A stretch of DNA of 64,000 nucleotides from Solirubrobacteraceae bacterium. GTDB taxonomy: Bacteria > Actinomycetota > Thermoleophilia > Solirubrobacterales > Solirubrobacteraceae. A program made the position numbers and the translations under genes. Of this stretch, positions 1,280 through 11,715 are shown piece after piece; the stretch's first letter is position 1; each line of letters begins with the position of its first letter. The DNA lies in contig JADGPL010000008.1 in NCBI GenBank assembly GCA_017882455.1, positions 78,107-142,106 of the forward strand. The letters are read 5' to 3'. The notes under the pieces are model-generated. The model ran no database searches, was not told the DNA's origin, and saw nothing but the letters and a program-made list of their open reading frames with translations.

Positions 1280-2359
1280 CTACAACCCCGGCGGGTGGCG
1301 AACAGACCAGTGGGCCCAGGTGGGGATGTGGTCGAGGATCCGCCAGCGGGGACCGTCTTCGCGCTGGTTCGGGCCCGTGTCGGTGCCGTCGTGACTCGTA
1401 TCCAGGCGCAATCCGGCGATGACGGCGAAGACATGCGGCGTCGGCTGGGAGGTCGCATAGATGGTCACCCAGCGTCCCGGTCCCGGAGCGCCCCAGTGGA
1501 CGTAGTCCTGAGCCAGGGGATTCTCGGCGAGGATTTCGGAGATCGGACGAACGCCGGAGCGATAGAGCACGTAGTTGATCGTGCTCGAGCAGTCCTCCTG
1601 CGTGGCTCCTCGCGGGTCGGGATGGCCACCCGGGCCGTAGGGAAGGTCCTGCAGCTCGTTCCCCGCGACCACCATCGCCTGGACGGTCGCCGGCACACCT
1701 GCGGGGACGAGCGCGAGGTGACCGTCTCGGGACGCGAGCCCGGCACGCTCTCCTCCGATGAACCGCACCGGGGTCGGGCTTTGACCCGCCAGGCCCACGT
1801 CCGCGCCCCACACGCCCGTGAGCACTCCCTCCCCGCCCGCCGACGCCGGCCCTGCGGAGGCGCCGCGGTACCTGCGCGCCCACTGCTCGACCTCTGCCAC
1901 ATACCAGCCGGCATGGTTGTAGGCGAGGATCGCACGGCCGTAGTCCTGGGGCGCTCCGGACGCGTGCAGGTAGTTGGCAGCCGAGTAGATCGCATCCGCC
2001 GGGTCCCAGCGATCGACCCTGCCGTCGCCGTCGCCGTCCACGCCGTAGAGCTGCCATGTGGAGGCGATGAACTGCATCGGACCGCCCGCCCCGGCCGAGT
2101 TGACTGCGCCCTCTTGGGTACATGCGGGATCAGGGTCGCGACCGTGATCGCACTCGACCTTGCCGATGCCCGCGAGAATCGTCCAATCCAGTCGGTAACG
2201 CGCGGCCGCCTGTCGATACAGACGCAGGTATGTGGGCGGGATATCGCTCAGCGCCTGTGCCGACGCTTCGTAGCCCTGTCCAAGCCGTTCGGCGTTGCCC
2301 ATACCCAGCGACATGCCACCGAGCGCCCCGATCACCGCGAGGCCCATCAGGCCAGCCAT
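1280..2359 (-). CDS. Lytic transglycosylase / peptidoglycan hydrolase with N-terminal TM (VirB1-like T4SS component)
   Basis: ORF 1280..2659; GIGKVECDHGRDPDPACTQEGAVNSAGAGGPMQFIASTWQLYGVDGDGDGRVDRWDPADAIYSAANYL is an SLT domain; upstream part overlaps the previous gene, so a start near 2359 is chosen (uncertain). Confidence 0.85.
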   Translation of the reverse strand: MAGLMGLAVIGALGGMSLGMGNAERLGQGYEASAQALSDIPPTYLRLYRQAAARYRLDWTILAGIGKVECDHGRDPDPACTQEGAVNSAGAGGPMQFIASTWQLYGVDGDGDGRVDRWDPADAIYSAANYLHASGAPQDYGRAILAYNHAGWYVAEVEQWARRYRGASAGPASAGGEGVLTGVWGADVGLAGQSPTPVRFIGGERAGLASRDGHLALVPAGVPATVQAMVVAGNELQDLPYGPGGHPDPRGATQEDCSSTINYVLYRSGVRPISEILAENPLAQDYVHWGAPGPGRWVTIYATSQPTPHVFAVIAGLRLDTSHDGTDTGPNQREDGPRWRILDHIPTWAHWSVRHPPGL

Positions 2360-2477
2360 CGTCAGCGCGATCAAGCCGGCGAGAGCGCTCGCTCGCGGAA
2401 ACCGGCCGCCGCCGGCATTCAGGCCGTGTTCGGCGCTCAGAAGCGACCCTCCATCCGCACACGAGCGCCGCCTCGGT

Positions 2478-4970
2478 TCACGCGCGGCCCGGCCCAAGCT
2501 GGCGTTTGCGTCCCGCCTCGACCTCGCGCGCGTCCCGCATGACACTGGATTCCGGTGCTCTGCCCCTGCGAGGCAGCTCAGGTGGCGGCTGCGACGCCTG
2601 GGACGCATCGGCGTCGCTGGCCGGGCGCGTCGCGCCCGCGGGCGCTCGAGCGTCGGCACCCACTGGTCGCGCCGTCTGATCCCTGCGCGCCGCGAGCCCG
2701 CGGTCGATCGCCAGTCGCGCCTCGCGCCGCTTGCTGGGGTCCAGCTGCTCGTACTGAGTCCGGGTGTATCCCGCGAGCACGGCGAGCGCCGCGTAGTCCC
2801 GGGTCTCCTTCAGGGCCGAGTGGCGCTCGTGAGCGGCCCGCACCGGCGCTGGACCGGCAGCCTGCGGCGTCCGCATCGGATGGCCGGGACCGGAGCGGGG
2901 CCGACCCTCATCGACCGGCAGCCTGCCCTCGGCGGGCTCGCGCAGAGCAGCTGTCCTCTCCTGGCCCTGCTCGATCTCGGCTTCGATGCGGCGCCCACGC
3001 GCCTGCAGTTCGGCAGCACGACGCTTATCGCCGGCGGCCTCTGCTCGTTCGCGCTCCCTGTGGACCCGCCCGAGCTGGATGTGGGACTCAGGGTGCTGCT
3101 CAGCCTCAGACGGGTCGGCGACAGGACCCGAAGAGGGACCATCGGATGTCGGACCGGTCTCGGGCGGCGTTCCTCCCCCACTCGAACCACCGCCTGAATC
3201 GGGCCTCGGCCGTGAGGGCGGCCATTCAACCTCCGGCGGCCTCCGCTTTCTCTCGCGCCTGCGCTCGTTCCAGCGCTCCACCGCGTCCCGCCCGCGCGCG
3301 CCGAGCGTGCTGCCCATCCGCCGTCCGATCGAGGAGCGTTCGACGTGCTCGCGTCCGATCGCCCCCGCAGCCACGCCGAGTGCCTGGTGGCGACGAGCGT
3401 AGGCACCCCACCAGAGCGCTGACATGAGCAGCCATTGCGTCCACCACCCGAGCGCGGTGAGGCTCGCGATCACCCCGATCACAGCGAGCACGGCGCCGAG
3501 CAGAAACGAGAAAAGCAGCTTCGAGACCACCGTCCCGAGCAGCTGAAGACCCCACTTGCGAAACACCGCCCGCCCACCCTCCCCAAACGCGGGAGCCAGG
3601 ACCATCGCCGGGGCGCACAACAGATAGAGCAGGCTGAACAGGGATGCCGCGAGCAGCCGCAGGACGATGAACCCCAGCAGCAGCAGCATCCCCAGCATCC
3701 CCGCCGCAATCAGCAGCAGCCCACCCAGCCGCGCCGGGGTCTGTGCGCCCGTCCGGAACTGGGCCTGTGCGGCGTCCGGACCGTCGCAGTTGGTGGCTTC
3801 GCTGCTCTGGCACATCGTGCGCAGCAGCGAAGAGCTCTCGTTGATCGAGTTTCGCTCAGGCCCGTTGGGCGGTAGCGCGAGGAAGATCGCTCCGTTGCTC
3901 TGAGCTTCGTGGAGCAACTGGGCGCTGCGAGCGAGCGTCCGGGCCGGCCCGCTCCCGGCGGCTATGCACCGGCCCGTGGACACGCTCCCCGGGGCGCAGC
4001 CGACCTGCGCAAGCTCAGCGGCCGCGATCCTGAGACCCGCGTTGCGCAGCTTGGGCTCCAGCCGGGAGGGGTCGCGACACCACTCCACGCTCCCGAACTC
4101 CAGGTAGCACCACGGGCCATCGATGGCCGACGCGAAGATCGTGTCGAGGCTGTCGGCGAAGGTCGCCTCGGCATGCGAGGGAGCGCCCTGTGCCGCGGCC
4201 GCCAGCGTTCCCAGGGCCACCTGGTTGGCCCATGCACCCAGAGCTCCCACGGTGCCAGTGGGATCGCTGATGACCCACAGGCCTCCGACCATCATCGCGG
4301 CCATCAGCAGCACCTCGCCCATCGTCGCAGCGACGCGGCGACGGATCAGGCCGTGGTACAGGGCGAGGACCGATGCGATGGCCAGCGACACCGGCAGCCA
4401 GGGCGCCGTCAGGGCGCTCTCCATCTGACGCAGGCCCCTGCCCAGGCTGCCGGCTGCCGCACTTGGGAGCAGGTCGATCGTGAAGCACCACTCGAGCATG
4501 ACCACGAGCGCGTGGACCGCCCATACGAGCCCCATCCAGATCGGGGCGACCACCACATCCTGGATGGCGCTGGACAGCATCGAACCGACACCGAGCACGC
4601 CGGTGTCGATGTGCACGTCTATGCCGTAGTCGGGCGTCGGCGCGGCCGACGCCACGAAGCCCGAGCTTTCACAGTGCCGTCGGTCCGTCGAGGAGAGGCC
4701 CGCCGCGATGACTCGCGCGCACGAGGGGCTGCCGAGACCGTTGCTCACGAGTGGATCGACCTCTCCCTGGGGTGAGCCGCCTTCCGCTTCGCCTGCTTCG
4801 GAGCCGCCCGCCCCGGCTGAGACGAGCGGCGCACGGCTCGGTGCGCTGGGCGCGCCCGCCTGTGCCCGCGCGCCCGTCTGCGCCCGCGCGCTCGAGGCCG
4901 GCACCGCGACGAAGGCGCCGCCCACGAGCACCGCGGCGATCAGAAGCGCGCCTCGACGACAGGCACGCAC
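2478..4970 (-). CDS. TrbL/VirB6-like multi-pass membrane protein with long charged Pro-rich C-terminal tail
   Basis: ORF 2478..5033; signal-like N-terminus, several hydrophobic segments (LLLIAAGMLGMLLLLGFIVLRLLAASLFSLLYLLCAPAMVLAPAFGEGGRAVFRKWGLQLLG), directly after the VirB4-like gene; GTG at 4970 avoids the long overlap. Confidence 0.8.
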   Translation of the reverse strand: MRACRRGALLIAAVLVGGAFVAVPASSARAQTGARAQAGAPSAPSRAPLVSAGAGGSEAGEAEGGSPQGEVDPLVSNGLGSPSCARVIAAGLSSTDRRHCESSGFVASAAPTPDYGIDVHIDTGVLGVGSMLSSAIQDVVVAPIWMGLVWAVHALVVMLEWCFTIDLLPSAAAGSLGRGLRQMESALTAPWLPVSLAIASVLALYHGLIRRRVAATMGEVLLMAAMMVGGLWVISDPTGTVGALGAWANQVALGTLAAAAQGAPSHAEATFADSLDTIFASAIDGPWCYLEFGSVEWCRDPSRLEPKLRNAGLRIAAAELAQVGCAPGSVSTGRCIAAGSGPARTLARSAQLLHEAQSNGAIFLALPPNGPERNSINESSSLLRTMCQSSEATNCDGPDAAQAQFRTGAQTPARLGGLLLIAAGMLGMLLLLGFIVLRLLAASLFSLLYLLCAPAMVLAPAFGEGGRAVFRKWGLQLLGTVVSKLLFSFLLGAVLAVIGVIASLTALGWWTQWLLMSALWWGAYARRHQALGVAAGAIGREHVERSSIGRRMGSTLGARGRDAVERWNERRRERKRRPPEVEWPPSRPRPDSGGGSSGGGTPPETGPTSDGPSSGPVADPSEAEQHPESHIQLGRVHRERERAEAAGDKRRAAELQARGRRIEAEIEQGQERTAALREPAEGRLPVDEGRPRSGPGHPMRTPQAAGPAPVRAAHERHSALKETRDYAALAVLAGYTRTQYEQLDPSKRREARLAIDRGLAARRDQTARPVGADARAPAGATRPASDADASQASQPPPELPRRGRAPESSVMRDAREVEAGRKRQLGPGRA

Positions 4971-4980
4971 CCCGCCCAAC

Positions 4981-7428
4981 TCAGCCCGCCGGCGTCGTCG
5001 AGAAGGCGCGCAGCAGCGACGGCACGACCACATCGACCTGGATCGCCTCCACGCGTCCCCGGTGGTCGCGAAACAGGCAGCGGCCGGCCTCTAGATCGAG
5101 CAGGCTCTGTCTCATCCTCCTGTCGTCAGGGTCGAGCCCGAGCAACGCGAGCGCACGCCTCGCCTCCGCCTCTGAGCGCATTCCGAACACGAACGTCGCG
5201 CCCAGGAGGTTCTCGAGGGACTCCCGCTCTCCGATCAGCCCGTCGCTGAGGAGCTGGGTGCTGATGATCGGCACGGCGAGCTCCGAGCGTCCCATCCGCT
5301 GGAGCGAGCCGAGCAGCGCCCTGCCGACGGGATCTCCCAGCAGCCTCCATCCCTCATCGAAGGAGAACAGCTTGAGACGATCCCTTTCCGAGCTCATCAG
5401 CTGCATCGCGAACATCGCGATCAGGCGCACGATCTGCTCCCCCACCCGCTCGGCCAGCGAGTACTCCGAGCGCCGTGTCCCTGGCTCGGGACCAGGCAGA
5501 TCCCGAATCGGGAGATAGGTCACCTGCGCGTGCCCGACAGGCGGCAGCTTTACCGCCGGATCTGCGAATCCGAGCTGGGTCAGCCCGGAGCGCGCGTAGA
5601 CCTCCAAGGTCTTGCCGACCTGCGCATCGACGCCCTCCCCCTCCCTCAGCGCACAGACCACCTCCATGCACGTGGGCCGGCGCGACCGCCGGCACACGCG
5701 ATCCACAGCCCCGATCACCGCTGTCTCCCAAGCAGGCTCTGCACGTCCCGGGAGGAGGTCGCGCAGGAACGAGACTGCAGCATCCTGGCTCAGATGCGCC
5801 GGTGCGACCCTCAGGGGGTCGAGCATCCCCCGCAGCGCCGGGTCGGGACGCAGCGTCACACACTCCGCATATGGAGCCACCTCCTCGAGCAGGTGAAAGC
5901 GGTGGTCGCCCTTGGGGTCACAGTCGATCACCCGAGCCCCCTGTAGGAACCCCTCGTACTTGAGCTTCTGCGCGAGAGTCGTCTTGCCCGACCCGAGTGC
6001 GCCCAGGCTCAGGATCGCCGCATTGCGGTTGCTGTCCGAGCCCTCTCTCAGGTTGAACCTGACGGGCCTCCTCGACCCCGAGAGCGTGTGTCCGAGATAG
6101 AAGCCGCTCCTCGACCCCGCAGCGTGCGCTGCGCTCGGCATCATTGCGGCGATCTGCTCAGCGGTCAGCGTGTCGTCGTAGCCGGCGATCCTCGTCCGCT
6201 GGGCTGGGAGGTGCTGGAGGAACAGCTGCAGCTGGTCACCCAGCGGGCGATACAGGTGAATCTCGCCATAGGCCCGCCTGCACAACTCGACTCGCCTCTC
6301 CAGCTCGCTCTCATCCGCAGCGCTCACCGCGATCGCGAGCGTCGCGCGCAACAGCGGCGGTTTGCTCGATGCCTGCAGATAGGCCAGCAGGTCCCTGGCC
6401 TCCTGGGTGCGCTCGTAGCCGAGGTCGGAGATGCCCTGCTCGCCGTCGGACTCCGCTCGCACGATCTGATCGGCATCTTGGATCCGGCGCCGCGCGATTC
6501 GCAGCGCGAGCTCGTTCGGCAGAAAGCGCGCGTTGAGGGACAGATCGATGCCAAACGGAAGGCTCTCGGGTGCCGCGAACATCAGCTCCGCCCGGGTGCT
6601 CGGAAAATGCATCCGCTCGGGCAGTGCTCCCACCACGAGCTGCGCCTGCCAGCTCGTACCGAGCTCAGACGCAATCCGCAGCACACGACCCATCACCTCG
6701 ACATATCCGTCCGTCCAACGCATCACGTCGCCCTCCAGCGGTGAGAGCACCGCGCTGCCGTTGCGCTCGAAGACGAGTGCCCGCGGCTCATGCAGACCGT
6801 CCACCTCCGGTTCGCCGAGGCCCCTGCAGAACGCCCTGCGCACGAGCCACTGCAGCTCCACCCCGCGCGCTTGGCGCACCGGCAGATAGTCGGCGAGGCG
6901 GGCATGGGCCTGATCTGCACGGACTCTCGCCCGCTCGAGCTCGGCGGCGCCCAGCACCCGCCTGTCACGTGTCGAGACTGCTCGCCGCAGGCTCTCCCAC
7001 CACTCTCGTGGATGCTGAGCCGCCGCCCTTGACAGGTATGAGGCGACATCTCGGTCGGGCTCTCGCAGGCTGACCAGCACAAACACAACCGGCTGGGAGC
7101 CACCCAGCTCCGCCATCCGCCGGGCCTGCTGTTCGACGTAGCGGCGTCGCGCCCGACCCTGCTCTCCCTGCCTCACCTCCCCCTCGCCACCCTCATCCGC
7201 GGCACCGGCCGGCCTGTCGCTCCCCCGGGCCGAACGGCTCGCGCGAATGATCTGGACATCGGCTTCGATCGCCTCCAGCGCTCCCACCCACTCGAGCAGG
7301 CGCGCTCGCTTGCCCTCCACGCCCAACCAGGCGTACGTGGCAAGATCGACCACGAAGGCCGCCCAGCCGTCGTCGGGTCCGTGGCCGAACACGCAATTGC
7401 CGTAAACGAACGAGATCGGCGCCTTCAC
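4981..7428 (-). CDS. VirB4/TraC-family T4SS ATPase
   Basis: 815 aa; Walker A GALGSGKTTLAQKL, DCDPKGD motif, Walker B LKLFSFDEGWRLL. Confidence 0.9.
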   Translation of the reverse strand: MKAPISFVYGNCVFGHGPDDGWAAFVVDLATYAWLGVEGKRARLLEWVGALEAIEADVQIIRASRSARGSDRPAGAADEGGEGEVRQGEQGRARRRYVEQQARRMAELGGSQPVVFVLVSLREPDRDVASYLSRAAAQHPREWWESLRRAVSTRDRRVLGAAELERARVRADQAHARLADYLPVRQARGVELQWLVRRAFCRGLGEPEVDGLHEPRALVFERNGSAVLSPLEGDVMRWTDGYVEVMGRVLRIASELGTSWQAQLVVGALPERMHFPSTRAELMFAAPESLPFGIDLSLNARFLPNELALRIARRRIQDADQIVRAESDGEQGISDLGYERTQEARDLLAYLQASSKPPLLRATLAIAVSAADESELERRVELCRRAYGEIHLYRPLGDQLQLFLQHLPAQRTRIAGYDDTLTAEQIAAMMPSAAHAAGSRSGFYLGHTLSGSRRPVRFNLREGSDSNRNAAILSLGALGSGKTTLAQKLKYEGFLQGARVIDCDPKGDHRFHLLEEVAPYAECVTLRPDPALRGMLDPLRVAPAHLSQDAAVSFLRDLLPGRAEPAWETAVIGAVDRVCRRSRRPTCMEVVCALREGEGVDAQVGKTLEVYARSGLTQLGFADPAVKLPPVGHAQVTYLPIRDLPGPEPGTRRSEYSLAERVGEQIVRLIAMFAMQLMSSERDRLKLFSFDEGWRLLGDPVGRALLGSLQRMGRSELAVPIISTQLLSDGLIGERESLENLLGATFVFGMRSEAEARRALALLGLDPDDRRMRQSLLDLEAGRCLFRDHRGRVEAIQVDVVVPSLLRAFSTTPAG

Positions 7429-8060
7429 CGAGGTCCGCTCCGACCGACCCCCGCACGCACGAGCATCCGTGTTCCCGGCCCCAACAGGATGATCTGGCCT
7501 CGATCCAGCGCTCGCCCCCCGGGATGCTGGCTGAGAACGAGCGCAGCGCGCAACCTCGTTGCGGCCAATCCAGAGGGCGTGCGGCGGAGCCCCTTTCCGG
7601 CACGGTCGTGCTCCACCGAGACGCGAACGGCGCCCGGTCCCGTGAAGCGCATCCGTCGCATCCTCGCATCCGAGCCATCCGGCAGCACCAGGATCTCCTC
7701 CGGATACCAGCGCTGTCCGACCGGCTCACACCGGCTGAGCCGCGCCAGCTGACGAGGTTCCAGGCAAAAGCGCAGGAGCGCACCGGCAGCGAGGTGAAAG
7801 GTCCGCCCCTCTATCCGGAGCACGCTCAGCACAGTCGCAGCGGTACCCGGCAAGGCAAGCTCGCGCAGATACCAGGGCAGGGCTCGGATGAGCCCGCCGA
7901 TCAGCGGAAGACGCGCCACCACGACAGCGACCGTGAGGATCGCCCCGAAGTACACGATCCCCCTGACCGGCACCCCGGCAGGATTCAACCGCATCGAGTC
8001 GATGCTGTAGACGCGGCGCTCCAGGTCGAACACGCGCCTGTAGGAGCGGATCTCCATCAC
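7425..8060 (-). CDS. TcpE/PrgI-like conjugation membrane protein
   Basis: 211 aa, two central hydrophobic segments, 4-bp overlaps with both neighbours in the T4SS-like operon. Confidence 0.6.
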   Translation of the reverse strand: MMEIRSYRRVFDLERRVYSIDSMRLNPAGVPVRGIVYFGAILTVAVVVARLPLIGGLIRALPWYLRELALPGTAATVLSVLRIEGRTFHLAAGALLRFCLEPRQLARLSRCEPVGQRWYPEEILVLPDGSDARMRRMRFTGPGAVRVSVEHDRAGKGLRRTPSGLAATRLRAALVLSQHPGGRALDRGQIILLGPGTRMLVRAGVGRSGPR

Positions 8061-8440
8061 GAGGCGCCGAACAGCGAGGTGACGGTGTCACGCAGGAGAT
8101 TCACACCCGCCGGCGTCGCCAGGAGCACCGAGACGATCCCAACCGCGAAGACGCCGGCCGCCTCCTTGAAGTCGCGGCGAAACGCCAGCACGGTCGCCGC
8201 CACCGCAAACGCAAGCCCGATCAGGCTCATCGCCACCGCGCGCCCGGTCGCCCCAGCCTTGGCAGCGGCCGATTCGAGCGACGCGCCTCCCTTTTCACCC
8301 GGACCCGCAGCCACCGCGCCCGACCCACCACCGCTCACCGCCGCCGCAGCGGGCATCGGCGCGGCGCCGACGCCTACAGCCACGAGAGCCGCGCTCGCGA
8401 TCAAGGGGACGATCGTCCGGCCATGCCGCCATCTCTTCAT
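8057..8440 (-). CDS. Small secreted/membrane protein, pilin-like (VirB2-type architecture)
   Basis: 127 aa with signal peptide and two hydrophobic helices (AVAMSLIGLAFAVAATVLAF; AAGVFAVGIVSVLLATPAGVNLL); operon position. Confidence 0.6.
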   Translation of the reverse strand: MKRWRHGRTIVPLIASAALVAVGVGAAPMPAAAAVSGGGSGAVAAGPGEKGGASLESAAAKAGATGRAVAMSLIGLAFAVAATVLAFRRDFKEAAGVFAVGIVSVLLATPAGVNLLRDTVTSLFGAS

Positions 8441-8464
8441 CTGCTCTCCTCCACGTTGGCCTCT

Positions 8465-9325
8465 CTATGCATCCGGATTCATCTGCACCGCGGCCACCTC
8501 CCAGCGGCCCTGCTCACGGGTGACGTCGATTTCGTAGGCGAGCACGTACTGCACGCCGCGTCCGTCATCGGCCTGGACGACAGCGATCACCGAGCTCCCG
8601 TCCGCTGACCAATCCACCCGCTGCACCGCCTCGAGCGTGAGGGCCATCGCGGGAAGCGACACCCGCGCGCCAGGGCTGAGATCGGAGGCGAGCTCCCCGT
8701 CCGCGTCACCCAGGTAGTTGCGAAGCGCGCGCTCGACCACGGTGTCGAGCGCCGGTTCTTCCACTTCTCGAAGGTGTGGCAGCGCATGATCGCCACCGGC
8801 AGCGGGTGCGCCCACGAATGCCGGGTAGCCGGCTACCGCGAGCCCGCCACCGGGCGCTCGCGTCACGCCCACGCTCAGATACAGCAGTCCCGCCGAGTCC
8901 GTCTGCGCCGCCACCGTGTACACGTGCTCTCCCGGGAGCGGCTCGCGGGCCTGCACCACTTCAGCCCACTCCACCTGCTGCTCCCCGGCCGGGGGTAGAC
9001 CGAGTCCCGCGTCCACGTTCATGCCCTCACTCGCGAAGGTTTCAAGCGCCTGTGTGCTCGTCTGGGGCTCCGCCGCATTCCAGCTCAGGTACCGTCGCGC
9101 AAAGAGCACCGCGTAGCCTTCCGCCGCTCGATCCGGGAGTGACGCCGAGAGCGACGGAGCCTCCCGTCGGACGGCCCGCGGCGGGGAGATGGCGAACCGC
9201 GCGCTGGCAGCCAACCCCATCAGCGAGGTCATGCCGATCAGATATCGAGGCAGGTTGCGTGCGAGACGGATCCGCCAAAGCGCCCGTGGAGTGATGGTCA
9301 CCTTCGCCCGAACCGAGCCGTTCAC
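8465..9325 (-). CDS. TcpC/VirB8-like conjugal transfer protein
   Basis: N-terminal TM then two NTF2-like-length segments (AAEGYAVLFARRYLSW...; VVERALRNYLGDADGELASDLSPGA); GTG at 9325 chosen because the upstream part overlaps 9334..9846. Confidence 0.7.
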   Translation of the reverse strand: MNGSVRAKVTITPRALWRIRLARNLPRYLIGMTSLMGLAASARFAISPPRAVRREAPSLSASLPDRAAEGYAVLFARRYLSWNAAEPQTSTQALETFASEGMNVDAGLGLPPAGEQQVEWAEVVQAREPLPGEHVYTVAAQTDSAGLLYLSVGVTRAPGGGLAVAGYPAFVGAPAAGGDHALPHLREVEEPALDTVVERALRNYLGDADGELASDLSPGARVSLPAMALTLEAVQRVDWSADGSSVIAVVQADDGRGVQYVLAYEIDVTREQGRWEVAAVQMNPDA

Positions 9326-9333
9326 GGTGAATC

Positions 9334-9846
9334 TCAGCGCTCGAATCCGAACTCTGGGCGCTGAGCCGCTCGCACCGGAGGTTCGACAGCGACAACCATG
9401 CGCTCGACTCCGCCGCCAGTTGAGATCGCTTCGCGCCAGGGTCGCCTTGGCGCAGCAGCAGAACGGTGTCGCACCGCGGCGCCGCGATCCCGGCGGGTAC
9501 CAGCCTCTGCGCGTCGGCCTGCGCTCGCCACAACGAGACGAGGAACAGATCCAGGTTCTACGCCTGCTCCGTTGCGAGGCCGAGTCACTCTCGCGCTGAG
9601 ATCGCCTGCAACAGCGGTGGCTCGCCTCCTCGCATCTCTCCCCGGAAGCAGCTGCTTCTTTCCCGAGGCCAGAAGTCCACTGGCGATATACGCCGCCCCC
9701 ATCAGCACCAGCGCTCCGCCCGCGAGAGCGATCAGACCGCCACGAGCGCCACGCCCCGCCGCCAGTTCCTGAGCTGCGTCTCTCAGAAACTCCTCCTCGT
9801 CGTATACCCGGTACACCTCTCGAGGTGCACGGCGAAGATATCTCAC
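9334..9846 (-). CDS. Single-TM hypothetical protein of the T4SS-like operon
   Basis: MRYLRRAPREVYRVYDEEEFLRDAAQ... TM ALAGGALVLMGAAYIASGLLASG; stop lies 9 bp before the TcpC-like start. Confidence 0.65.
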   Translation of the reverse strand: MRYLRRAPREVYRVYDEEEFLRDAAQELAAGRGARGGLIALAGGALVLMGAAYIASGLLASGKKQLLPGRDARRRATAVAGDLSARVTRPRNGAGVEPGSVPRLVVASAGRRAEAGTRRDRGAAVRHRSAAAPRRPWREAISTGGGVERMVVAVEPPVRAAQRPEFGFER

Positions 9847-10006
9847 TCACTCTCCTTCGATGCGCGCACGCGGACGACCGAGGTCCGTAGCGGGGAGAAC
9901 TCCGGACCCCGGCCGTCTGCGCGCGATTGGGCTTCACCGCGCAGTCGTCCGTTCGACCAACTGCCGGCGTCCCAGGGGACGGTCCTATGAGTGGGGGGTG
10001 AAATAA

Positions 10007-10669
10007 TCATAGGTCGGTCCCTGTGTGCTGATCCGACGCTCGCGGTAATACCGGGACACCGTCTTCCGCCTGATTCACCAGTAGCCTGAGCCGCCCACGC
10101 GCCCGCTGTGCCACCTTGCGGTACTTCTCGGAGCTCCAGCCGTGAAGTCGACAGAATTCACCGCAGTCCATCTGAAGCGAAACCTGACAGGCGAGCACGA
10201 GCCGCTGCTCCGGGGTGAGCCTGGGCGCCAACGAGTGGAGCAGCTCCAGCTCCTGGCGCAGGATGACGAGCTGCTCGAGCTCGATGCGATCGACGATCAG
10301 GATGCCGTCCCGATCGACGCCGTCCAGCGGCAACGCGCTCTCGAGCGCCGCCTGCATCGGGCTGCGACCCGACAGGGCCCGGCGCCGGTCGTGGATCCGT
10401 GAGATGAAGCGCTGCTCGATGACGTTGGCCAGATGCCGACGGCTCGAGAAGACTCCGCCCCGGCGCGTGTGAGCCACGAGCTCGAGGATCGCCTGGCTGT
10501 AACAGTCTTCGAGATCCTCCCGGCGCAGGCGGCGAGCGTGCACCCGCAGAAGCAGGTCACGACGCGCTCTGGCTACGAGCGCAACCTCCTCAGCGGCATC
10601 TCGACCGCGCGTCCCACCGCGAGCGGCCGCAACCGCGCCTCGTCTTTTTGGCTCGTATCGGGTACACAC
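10007..10669 (-). CDS. Sigma-70-like / RNA polymerase sigma factor-related regulator
   Basis: 220 aa; region-2-like RLRREDLEDCYSQAILELVAHTRRG and region-4-like RLTPEQRLVLACQVSLQMDCGEFCRLHGWSSEKYRKVAQRARGRLR. Confidence 0.65.
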   Translation of the reverse strand: MCTRYEPKRRGAVAAARGGTRGRDAAEEVALVARARRDLLLRVHARRLRREDLEDCYSQAILELVAHTRRGGVFSSRRHLANVIEQRFISRIHDRRRALSGRSPMQAALESALPLDGVDRDGILIVDRIELEQLVILRQELELLHSLAPRLTPEQRLVLACQVSLQMDCGEFCRLHGWSSEKYRKVAQRARGRLRLLVNQAEDGVPVLPRASDQHTGTDL

Positions 10670-10764: not shown

Positions 10765-11715
10765 ATGAGCATCACCGACCGCCTCCACGCGCTCGACCGT
10801 CGCCAGCAGCAGATGCCGCATGTTGGCTTCATCGCGGCCGTGGTCAAGAAGTTCGGCGACGACCAGGCCGGGCAGCTCGCAGCCCTGATCGCCTACTACG
10901 GGTTCGTATCGCTCTTCCCCCTGCTGCTGGTGCTGGTCACCATCCTCGGCTTCGTGCTGCAGGGCGATCCTGGCGAGCAGAAGCGCATCCTCGATGGTGC
11001 CCTCGGGCAGTTCCCGATCGTCAGCGACCAGCTCAAACTGCACTCCCTGACCGGCAGCGGCATCGGGCTCGCGATCGGCGTGGTCGGCTCGCTGCTCGCC
11101 GGCATGGGCATCACCGGCGCCACCCAGAACGCCTTCAACCGCATCTGGAGCGTCCCCTTCAAGGACCGCCCCAACTTTCTCTTCGCCCATCTGCGCGGCC
11201 TCGGGATGCTCGCGATCCTGGGCACCCTCTCGATCGTCTCCACCACCGCAGCCGGCTTCGTCGGGTCGAGCTCCCACGCCGCCCCGGACGTCATCGCCGG
11301 GATCCTCGTCGCCTTCGTCCTCAACCTCGCCCTGTTCATGACCGCCTTCAAGCTCCTCACCGCCGTGGACATCGGCTGGCGGGACCTTCTCCCCGGAGTG
11401 ATCGTGGCCACCGTCTTCTGGCAGCTGCTGCAGCACCTCGGCGGCTACTACATCGATCACGAGCTCAAGCACACCGGGCCGCTCTACGGCGTCTTCGCCC
11501 TCGTGCTCGGGCTGCTCGCCTGGCTCTACCTCGGAGCCCAGCTCACCATCTTCGCCGCCGAGATCAACGTCGTGCGCCTGCATCGGCTGTGGCCGCGGAG
11601 CTTCTTCTCCGAACCGCTGCTCGAGGCCGACAGGCGCGCCCTCACCTCATCCGCCGAGGTCGAGGAGCGCGTCGAGGAGGAGAACGTCGAGGTCAGCTTC
11701 GAGGGGCCCGGGTAG
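10765..11715 (+). CDS. YihY/BrkB family inner membrane protein
   Basis: AALIAYYGFVSLFPLLLVLVTILGFVL and LYGVFALVLGLLAWLYLGAQLTIFAAEINVV are YihY family signatures. Confidence 0.93.
   Translation: MSITDRLHALDRRQQQMPHVGFIAAVVKKFGDDQAGQLAALIAYYGFVSLFPLLLVLVTILGFVLQGDPGEQKRILDGALGQFPIVSDQLKLHSLTGSGIGLAIGVVGSLLAGMGITGATQNAFNRIWSVPFKDRPNFLFAHLRGLGMLAILGTLSIVSTTAAGFVGSSSHAAPDVIAGILVAFVLNLALFMTAFKLLTAVDIGWRDLLPGVIVATVFWQLLQHLGGYYIDHELKHTGPLYGVFALVLGLLAWLYLGAQLTIFAAEINVVRLHRLWPRSFFSEPLLEADRRALTSSAEVEERVEEENVEVSFEGPG

What the first reader, a model, noticed from the sequence alone, without database searches (positions are those of the whole stretch)
1280..10669. Compact T4SS/conjugation-like operon lacking relaxase and coupling protein
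Seen: seven minus-strand genes, several with 4-bp overlaps, encode in order a sigma-like regulator, a 1-TM protein, a TcpC/VirB8-like protein, a pilin-like small protein, a TcpE/PrgI-like protein, a VirB4-like ATPase, a TrbL/VirB6-like protein and a lytic transglycosylase. Known: these are core parts of single-membrane T4SSs. No relaxase, VirD4/TcpA coupling ATPase, integrase or att site is visible at either flank; ordinary metabolic genes flank it. Inference: a domesticated T4SS (DNA uptake, protein export or surface apparatus), or an ICE whose DNA-processing genes are elsewhere.
Basis: partly seen in the sequence, partly recalled or inferred. Interest (0 to 1): 0.8.

Follow-up and report, generated by a model that had tools for sequence, protein, structure and literature searches.

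The report
Fixed, split chromosomal conjugation machine
A soil bacterium and nearly all its genus-mates carry a conjugation-type DNA-transfer machine that has stopped behaving like a mobile element: its channel genes and its DNA-handling genes sit at two separate fixed places in the chromosome, and the channel operon contains a previously uncatalogued, strongly structured RNA-like element.

Summary
The operon is real. Window 1280-10669 (minus strand) encodes sigma-like, 1-TM, TcpC/VirB8, small membrane protein, TcpE, TcpF/VirB4, VirB6 and lytic transglycosylase, in the gene order of the pCW3 tcp region. Locally it has no relaxase, coupling protein, integrase or att site. "Lacking relaxase and coupling protein" is wrong for the genome. 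A second locus beside hrcA-dnaJ (another contig) encodes a VirD4-type coupling ATPase, a second coupling-type ATPase fused to a MOB_C-family (Replic_Relax) domain, an SSB, and a small winged-helix PD-(D/E)XK protein with intact catalytic residues. Both loci occupy the same chromosomal places in most of the 24 genus genomes and in sister genera. They diverge in step with housekeeping genes, are under purifying selection, and the channel operon has been lost by internal deletion rather than excision. In more distant relatives each half of the second locus lies next to the channel operon. Best reading: a vertically inherited, immobilised conjugation system, most likely donating chromosomal DNA; the substrate is unproven. 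New within the operon: a ~150-nt structured element (41 pairs, 15 with compensatory double changes, sense-strand G-U bias), absent from Rfam, single-copy and confined to this genus, with a weak trace in one sister genus.

The parts
10007..10669 (-). sigma-70-like regulator, first gene of the operon
   Evidence: NCBIfam TIGR02937 1.7e-4, below cutoff; conserved in place in 14 genomes
9870..10021 (-). structured non-coding element (three hairpin domains, C-rich loop) between sigma and the rest of the operon; its first stem overlaps the end of the sigma gene
   Evidence: 41 pairs, 96.1% of cells paired, 15 pairs with double changes, 0/500 shuffles; fold z = -5.6; G-U 42 vs A-C 6; no Rfam match; found in G155, outside the training set
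9334..9846 (-). 1-TM protein, N-terminus REVYRVYDEEEFL
   Evidence: sequence; same N-terminal motif encoded at the same place in other genomes
8465..9313 (-). TcpC/VirB8-like protein; the long ORF runs to 9937, conservation starts at ~9313
   Evidence: Pfam TpcC 5.3e-6; AlphaFold model (pLDDT 75) matches pCW3 TcpC 3UB1 at 1.4e-10 and ICESt3 OrfG at 2e-7
8057..8440 (-). small membrane protein, position of TcpD / pilin-like
   Evidence: conserved in synteny; no family match
7425..8060 (-). TcpE-like membrane protein
   Evidence: Pfam TcpE 3.7e-4, below cutoff; conserved in synteny
4981..7428 (-). VirB4/TcpF ATPase with intact Walker A and B
   Evidence: motifs invariant in the alignment except a truncated frame in G154; dN/dS 0.23
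2478..5033 (-). VirB6/TcpH-like polytopic membrane protein
   Evidence: NCBIfam CD3337/EF1877 5.9e-9
1280..2659 (-). lytic transglycosylase with a C-terminal NlpC/P60-like stretch (invariant DCSS and H)
   Evidence: SLT_2 1.9e-14; PDB MltB-type matches about 1e-10; invariant residues
20..1267 (-). flanking FAD oxidoreductase, the constant neighbour on one side (not part of the machine)
10765..11715 (+). flanking BrkB-family membrane protein, the constant neighbour on the other side (not part of the machine)

Best explanation
It is the channel half of an ancient conjugation system that has been immobilised in the chromosome of one Solirubrobacteraceae genus and its closest sister genera. The window operon (locus A) builds the pore: VirB4 motor, VirB6, VirB8/TcpC, TcpE, a small membrane subunit and a wall hydrolase. 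Locus B, beside hrcA-dnaJ on another contig, supplies DNA handling: a VirD4 coupling ATPase, a coupling-type ATPase fused to a MOB_C-like domain, a small winged-helix PD-(D/E)XK protein that is the best relaxase candidate, and an SSB. Inferred mechanism: the small PD-(D/E)XK protein nicks chromosomal DNA, VirD4 (with or without the fused ATPase) feeds the strand to the VirB4/VirB6/TcpC channel, the hydrolase opens the wall, and the DNA leaves the cell. Shown: parts, intact motifs, fixed position, vertical descent, selection, and linkage of both halves in relatives. Inferred: that A and B work together here, that DNA is the substrate, and that the structured element is an RNA controlling the operon.
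For: Fixed site A: BrkB - sigma - TcpC - small protein - TcpE - VirB4 - VirB6 - transglycosylase - FAD oxidoreductase in the same order wherever contigs reach; VirB4 found in 19 of 24 genus genomes and in genera g4 and g18, forming one clade (support 0.85) that excludes the other Solirubrobacterales VirB4s. Fixed site B beside hrcA-dnaJ; TraG-MOB_C fusion at >=59% identity in 19 of 24 genus genomes. Distances correlate with unlinked housekeeping genes: VirB4-HrcA r=0.75, TraG-FADox r=0.89, VirB4-TraG r=0.58. dN/dS of VirB4 0.23 against DnaJ 0.22 and HrcA 0.25. Loss by internal deletion: in G151 the start of sigma is joined in frame to the end of the transglycosylase between the same neighbours; in G158 the middle of the operon is missing. 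A-B link: VirD4, small PD-(D/E)XK protein and SSB lie next to the channel genes in G027, and the TraG-MOB_C fusion lies next to them in G085 and G087. MOB_C: PF13814 match 6e-13; PF13814 equals MobC relaxase (PMC5357655) and MOBC belongs to the PD-(D/E)XK superfamily (PMC12857230). The small protein keeps D, E-x-E and K in 17 of 18 sequences.
Against: No nicking, transfer or expression data exist. The small protein has no Pfam match of its own and aligns to the fused MOB_C domain only at 69% hhalign probability. The fused domain lost the PD aspartate in 9 of 18 genomes, so it is probably not a working nuclease in all. Retention is not strictly coupled: G158 keeps B without A, and G155 (92% complete) keeps A with no close B match. 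The side of locus B away from hrcA-dnaJ varies between genomes, with transposase- and integrase-like ORFs in some. All genomes are draft MAGs.
Confidence: 0.6

Rival explanations
1. A domesticated protein-export or surface apparatus: the T4SS moves effector or surface proteins and locus B is only partly connected with it.
For: No classical HUH or Rep_trans relaxase (PF03432, PF02486) in the genome. Half of the fused MOB_C domains have lost the PD aspartate. T4CPs can recruit proteins, and many ICE-derived T4SSs are thought to be domesticated into protein transport (PMC3158045).
Against: Locus B keeps an SSB and a PD-(D/E)XK protein with intact catalytic residues beside VirD4; the same set lies with the channel genes in relatives. 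No candidate effector gene is conserved beside either locus.
Confidence: 0.2
2. An ordinary ICE, or fragments of a recently scattered one.
For: All parts are of conjugative origin, and related mobile elements with TraG and MOB_C genes exist in the same genome, each with a recombinase nearby.
Against: Same chromosomal sites across the genus, one VirB4 clade, no integrase at A, deletion scars rather than clean empty sites.
Confidence: 0.08
3. A decaying relic under no selection.
For: Deleted in G151 and G158; no close locus B match in G155.
Against: Full-length frames with intact motifs at 59-80% identity in most genomes; dN/dS like DnaJ; covarying structured element.
Confidence: 0.07
4. A DNA-uptake machine, like the ComB system of Helicobacter.
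For: A T4SS with no local relaxase or coupling protein.
Against: ComEC is not found in this genome (95% complete); conserved coupling ATPases point to export.
Confidence: 0.05

Closest known systems
tcp conjugation region of Clostridium perfringens pCW3 (with Tn916, ICEBs1 and ICESt3 relatives; MPF_FA class)
   Same: Gene order tcpC-D-E-F-H-G (order recalled from the literature); TcpF and TcpE homologies; TcpC fold closest to pCW3 TcpC; wall hydrolase at the end
   Different: Chromosomal and fixed; no integrase; no TcpA or TcpM at the locus; coupling and MOB_C proteins at a second fixed locus; structured element inside the operon
MOB_C relaxases (TraX of pAD1, MobC of CloDF13; Pfam Replic_Relax)
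   Same: Winged-helix plus PD-(D/E)XK layout; PF13814 match
   Different: One copy is fused to a coupling-type ATPase and often lacks the PD aspartate; the small copy scores in no Pfam family
Gonococcal genetic island T4SS (chromosomal DNA secretion)
   Same: Chromosomal T4SS thought to donate chromosomal DNA
   Different: GGI is a horizontally acquired island with a MOBH relaxase; here both loci are vertically inherited and unlinked. Comparison from general knowledge and PMC12857230
Transjugation of Thermus thermophilus (TdtA ATPase and NurA nuclease) and mycobacterial distributive conjugal transfer
   Same: Host-borne ATPase and nuclease, or chromosomal loci, that move chromosomal DNA between cells (PMC5365140)
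   Different: Those work without a T4SS; TdtA lies in an active ICE
6C RNA of Actinobacteria
   Same: C-rich hairpin loops
   Different: No Rfam match even at E <= 1; different architecture; analogy only, from memory

Membership tests
Tcp/Tn916-type single-membrane T4SS (MPF_FA) | VirB4/TcpF ATPase with intact ATPase motifs | tested here: met
Tcp/Tn916-type single-membrane T4SS (MPF_FA) | VirB8-like TcpC with two NTF2-like domains | tested here: met
   Pfam at its threshold; fold match 3UB1 1.4e-10
Tcp/Tn916-type single-membrane T4SS (MPF_FA) | VirB6/TcpH-like membrane protein | tested here: inconclusive
   NCBIfam CD3337/EF1877 5.9e-9 but below curated cutoff
Tcp/Tn916-type single-membrane T4SS (MPF_FA) | TcpE | tested here: inconclusive
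   3.7e-4, below cutoff; position fits
Tcp/Tn916-type single-membrane T4SS (MPF_FA) | Peptidoglycan hydrolase | tested here: met
   SLT_2 1.9e-14. The NlpC/P60-like C-terminus could not be confirmed because the model had low confidence
Integrative and conjugative element | Integrase and att sites at the element | tested here: not met
   None seen in 38 kb upstream or beside the operon; constant neighbours. att repeats were judged from synteny, not by a dedicated search
Integrative and conjugative element | Relaxase and coupling protein in the same element | tested here: not met
   They lie on another contig, at a second fixed locus
Integrative and conjugative element | Patchy presence with clean empty sites | tested here: not met
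   Genus-wide presence; deletion scars in G151 and G158
MOB_C relaxase | PF13814 match | tested here: met
   Fused protein 6e-13; the small protein has no match
MOB_C relaxase | PD-(D/E)XK catalytic residues conserved | tested here: inconclusive
   Met in the small protein (17 of 18), not met in half of the fused domains
MOB_C relaxase | Nicking at an oriT | not testable with these tools
   Needs biochemistry; no oriT was identified
VirD4-type coupling protein | TrwB/TraG-type NTPase with Walker A and B | tested here: met
   PF10412 4.6e-8 and PF12696 1.5e-5, both over cutoff; PDB DotL 7.3e-9 and TrwB 3.7e-4; motifs
ComB-like DNA uptake | ComEC partner | tested here: not met
   PF03772 absent in this genome while found in 10 of 14 control genomes
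Known RNA family (Rfam 15) | Covariance-model match | tested here: not met
   0 matches up to E = 1

The most novel reading that the evidence does not exclude
A whole uncultured soil genus keeps, by vertical descent, a host-owned conjugation machine split over two chromosomal loci that donates its own chromosomal DNA, using a new PD-(D/E)XK relaxase type and a coupling ATPase fused to a MOB_C domain, with its channel operon controlled by a new structured RNA.
Probability: 0.3. Interest if true: 0.85.

Novelty: new variant of a known kind. Interest (0 to 1): 0.62.

Why it matters
Conjugation systems are normally carried by elements that move themselves. A complete set that is fixed, split over two loci, vertically inherited and held by selection as strong as on chaperone genes suggests the host itself profits from exporting DNA (or protein) through it, a rare and directly testable case of owned conjugation. 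T4SS and coupling proteins were found to be surprisingly rare in Actinobacteria although relaxases are common (PMC3158045); here is a lineage where the channel is a genus-level trait. The element at 9870-10021 is a candidate new RNA family with strong covariation, and gives a handle on how such a machine is kept silent or switched on.

Tried and rejected
HUH relaxase PF03432 and Rep_trans PF02486: none in the genome. oriT: I compared intergenic stretches across genomes and found a single-copy palindrome in locus B but nothing that identifies a nic site; the palindrome does not occur in the window, so it does not tie A to B. I considered the structured element as an oriT or single-strand DNA hairpin; the G-U excess on the sense strand favours RNA, and single-copy position does not decide. 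6C RNA was considered and no Rfam match was found. PDB sequence searches with the VirB4 and TraG-MOB_C profiles gave nothing useful. The hydrolase model was too poor for a fold search. Plasmid relatives of VirB4 are all below 30% identity among those listed, and of TraG-MOB_C partial only. Papers on Solirubrobacter or Thermoleophilia and T4SS or conjugation gave nothing on point.

Full report
OBSERVATION. The operon exists as described. The minus-strand ORFs between 1280 and 10669 encode, from the 5' end of the operon, a sigma-like protein, a 1-TM protein, TcpC/VirB8, a small membrane protein, TcpE, VirB4/TcpF, VirB6 and a lytic transglycosylase. VirB4 (AAA_10 1.7e-44; TcpF 1.1e-55) and the hydrolase (SLT_2 1.9e-14) are secure. 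TcpC sits exactly at its Pfam threshold, but its predicted fold (pLDDT 75) has pCW3 TcpC 3UB1 as best PDB match (1.4e-10), then VirB8-like OrfG of ICESt3. TcpE, VirB6 and sigma are below curated cutoffs and rest also on gene order, which is that of the tcp region of pCW3 (recalled). The sequence read upstream of the window on the same contig (38 of 78 kb) holds housekeeping genes.

THE MISSING GENES ARE ELSEWHERE. The window is G000:C44:78107-142106 in a 3.31-Mb, 51-contig, 95%-complete genome. TraG-D_C finds a coupling protein on contig C27. Around it (locus B, L010 about 2.0-11.0 kb) lie: a 1168-aa protein with a P-loop ATPase and a C-terminal Replic_Relax domain (6e-13); a conserved ~313-aa protein; an OmpR-type regulator; a 530-aa VirD4-type ATPase (TrwB_AAD_bind 4.6e-8; PDB DotL and TrwB); a ~244-aa winged-helix protein; an SSB; then hrcA and dnaJ. 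Replic_Relax PF13814 corresponds to the MobC relaxase family (PMC5357655), and MOBC relaxases belong to the PD-(D/E)XK nuclease superfamily (PMC12857230). In the 1168-aa fusion the PD aspartate is missing in 9 of 18 genomes. In the ~244-aa protein the D, E-x-E and K of a PD-(D/E)XK site are kept in 17 of 18 sequences, including distant G027. Profile comparison aligns the two proteins over winged helix and active-site region at 69% probability. The small protein is therefore the better relaxase candidate; this is an inference. HUH (PF03432) and Rep_trans (PF02486) relaxases are absent from the genome.

BOTH LOCI ARE FIXED. VirB4 relatives occur in 19 of 24 genomes of the genus; G161 carries other operon genes at a contig end. 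Wherever contigs reach, the operon lies between the BrkB gene and the FAD oxidoreductase gene in the same order. Its VirB4s form one clade with sister genera g4 and g18 (support 0.85), while a second VirB4 from a genus member (G156:C96) falls elsewhere. Locus B is next to hrcA-dnaJ in the genus and in g4 and g18, with local inversions in some (G165, G147) and a variable outer side. Protein distances of locus A and B genes correlate with each other and with unlinked housekeeping genes. VirB4 dN/dS (0.23) equals that of DnaJ (0.22) and HrcA (0.25) by the same rough method. In G151 the start of sigma is joined in frame to the end of the hydrolase between unchanged neighbours; G158 has lost the middle of the operon. 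These are deletions, not excisions, and show that the operon was there before.

A AND B BELONG TOGETHER, PROBABLY. In G027 the VirD4, small PD-(D/E)XK and SSB genes sit next to the channel genes, and in G085 and G087 the TraG-MOB_C fusion sits next to them. Within the genus the link is loose: G158 keeps B without A, and G155 keeps A with no close B match, though these are draft genomes. As an internal contrast, the same genome has three other MOB_C systems, each with a recombinase gene nearby: an ICE-like T4SS on C31, and elements with serine recombinases on C45 and C7 (identified by sequence appearance, not by a family search).

A STRUCTURED ELEMENT IN THE OPERON. Between sigma and the 1-TM gene, 12 genomes share a ~150-nt non-coding block. 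RNAalifold gives three hairpin domains; 15 of 41 pairs have changes on both sides. Against controls: 96.1% of cells paired (shuffles 90.2%), 29 double-change cells (shuffles 7.8), 0/500 shuffles reach any measure, and slid structures drop to about 40% paired. The window copy folds at z = -5.6. G-U pairs outnumber A-C 42 to 6, which points to RNA of the operon's own strand. A covariance model finds the G155 copy, which was not in the training set, at 100.9 bits, a weaker copy in G167 and a faint one in sister genus g4. It is single-copy in the genome and was not found in 58 sampled genomes of the family other than three of this genus; one genus member, G153, also scored none. Rfam has no match. 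Function: most likely a cis-acting leader or intercistronic RNA; an origin-of-transfer role is less likely but not excluded.

MECHANISM. Likely sequence of events: regulators release the operon; the small PD-(D/E)XK protein nicks DNA; coupling ATPases deliver a strand to the VirB4/VirB6/TcpC channel; the hydrolase opens the wall; SSB protects the DNA. Only the parts, their motifs, their fixed positions and their selection are shown. Substrate and recipient are inferred. ComEC is absent from this genome, which argues against an uptake role and against a recipient relying on ComEC of the same strain.

VERDICT. The system is a new variant of a known kind: a Tcp-type T4SS turned into a split, vertically inherited chromosomal trait, with a new structured element. 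Named relatives in public genomes are soil MAGs labelled Solirubrobacteraceae, Solirubrobacterales or Actinobacteria.

Noticed in passing
G000:C31:140703-143100 (L008 8614-11044); also G156:C116 and G151:C117: A second T4SS whose VirB4 is split into two adjacent genes, N-terminal domain and ATPase domain, the same way in three genomes.
   Followed up: partly
L010:6013-6038 (locus B): Near-perfect palindrome TCCGAGAnCCCCTTAAGGGGnTCTCGGA, single copy in the genome, in the same intergenic spot in several other genus genomes, upstream of a conserved ~313-aa protein of unknown function. Operator or transfer origin unknown.
   Followed up: partly
G000:C45 (L163 4759-10851) and G000:C7 (L164 9751-15231): Two elements with serine-recombinase-like, TraG-like, Replic_Relax and DNA methyltransferase genes; no channel operon was seen in the stretches read, so they may borrow a T4SS in trans.
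   Followed up: partly
whole genome G000: No ComEC (PF03772) match in a 95%-complete genome although it was found in 10 of 14 control genomes.
   Followed up: no
G134:C1:978385, G135:C1:2356428 and other genomes of genus g17: VirD4-like ATPase at about 40% identity in 28 of 28 g17 genomes, with no VirB4 match in that genus; an orphan coupling-type ATPase of unknown role.
   Followed up: partly
L138:4862-5335 (G151): In-frame chimera of the start of sigma and the end of the transglycosylase left by the operon deletion.
   Followed up: yes
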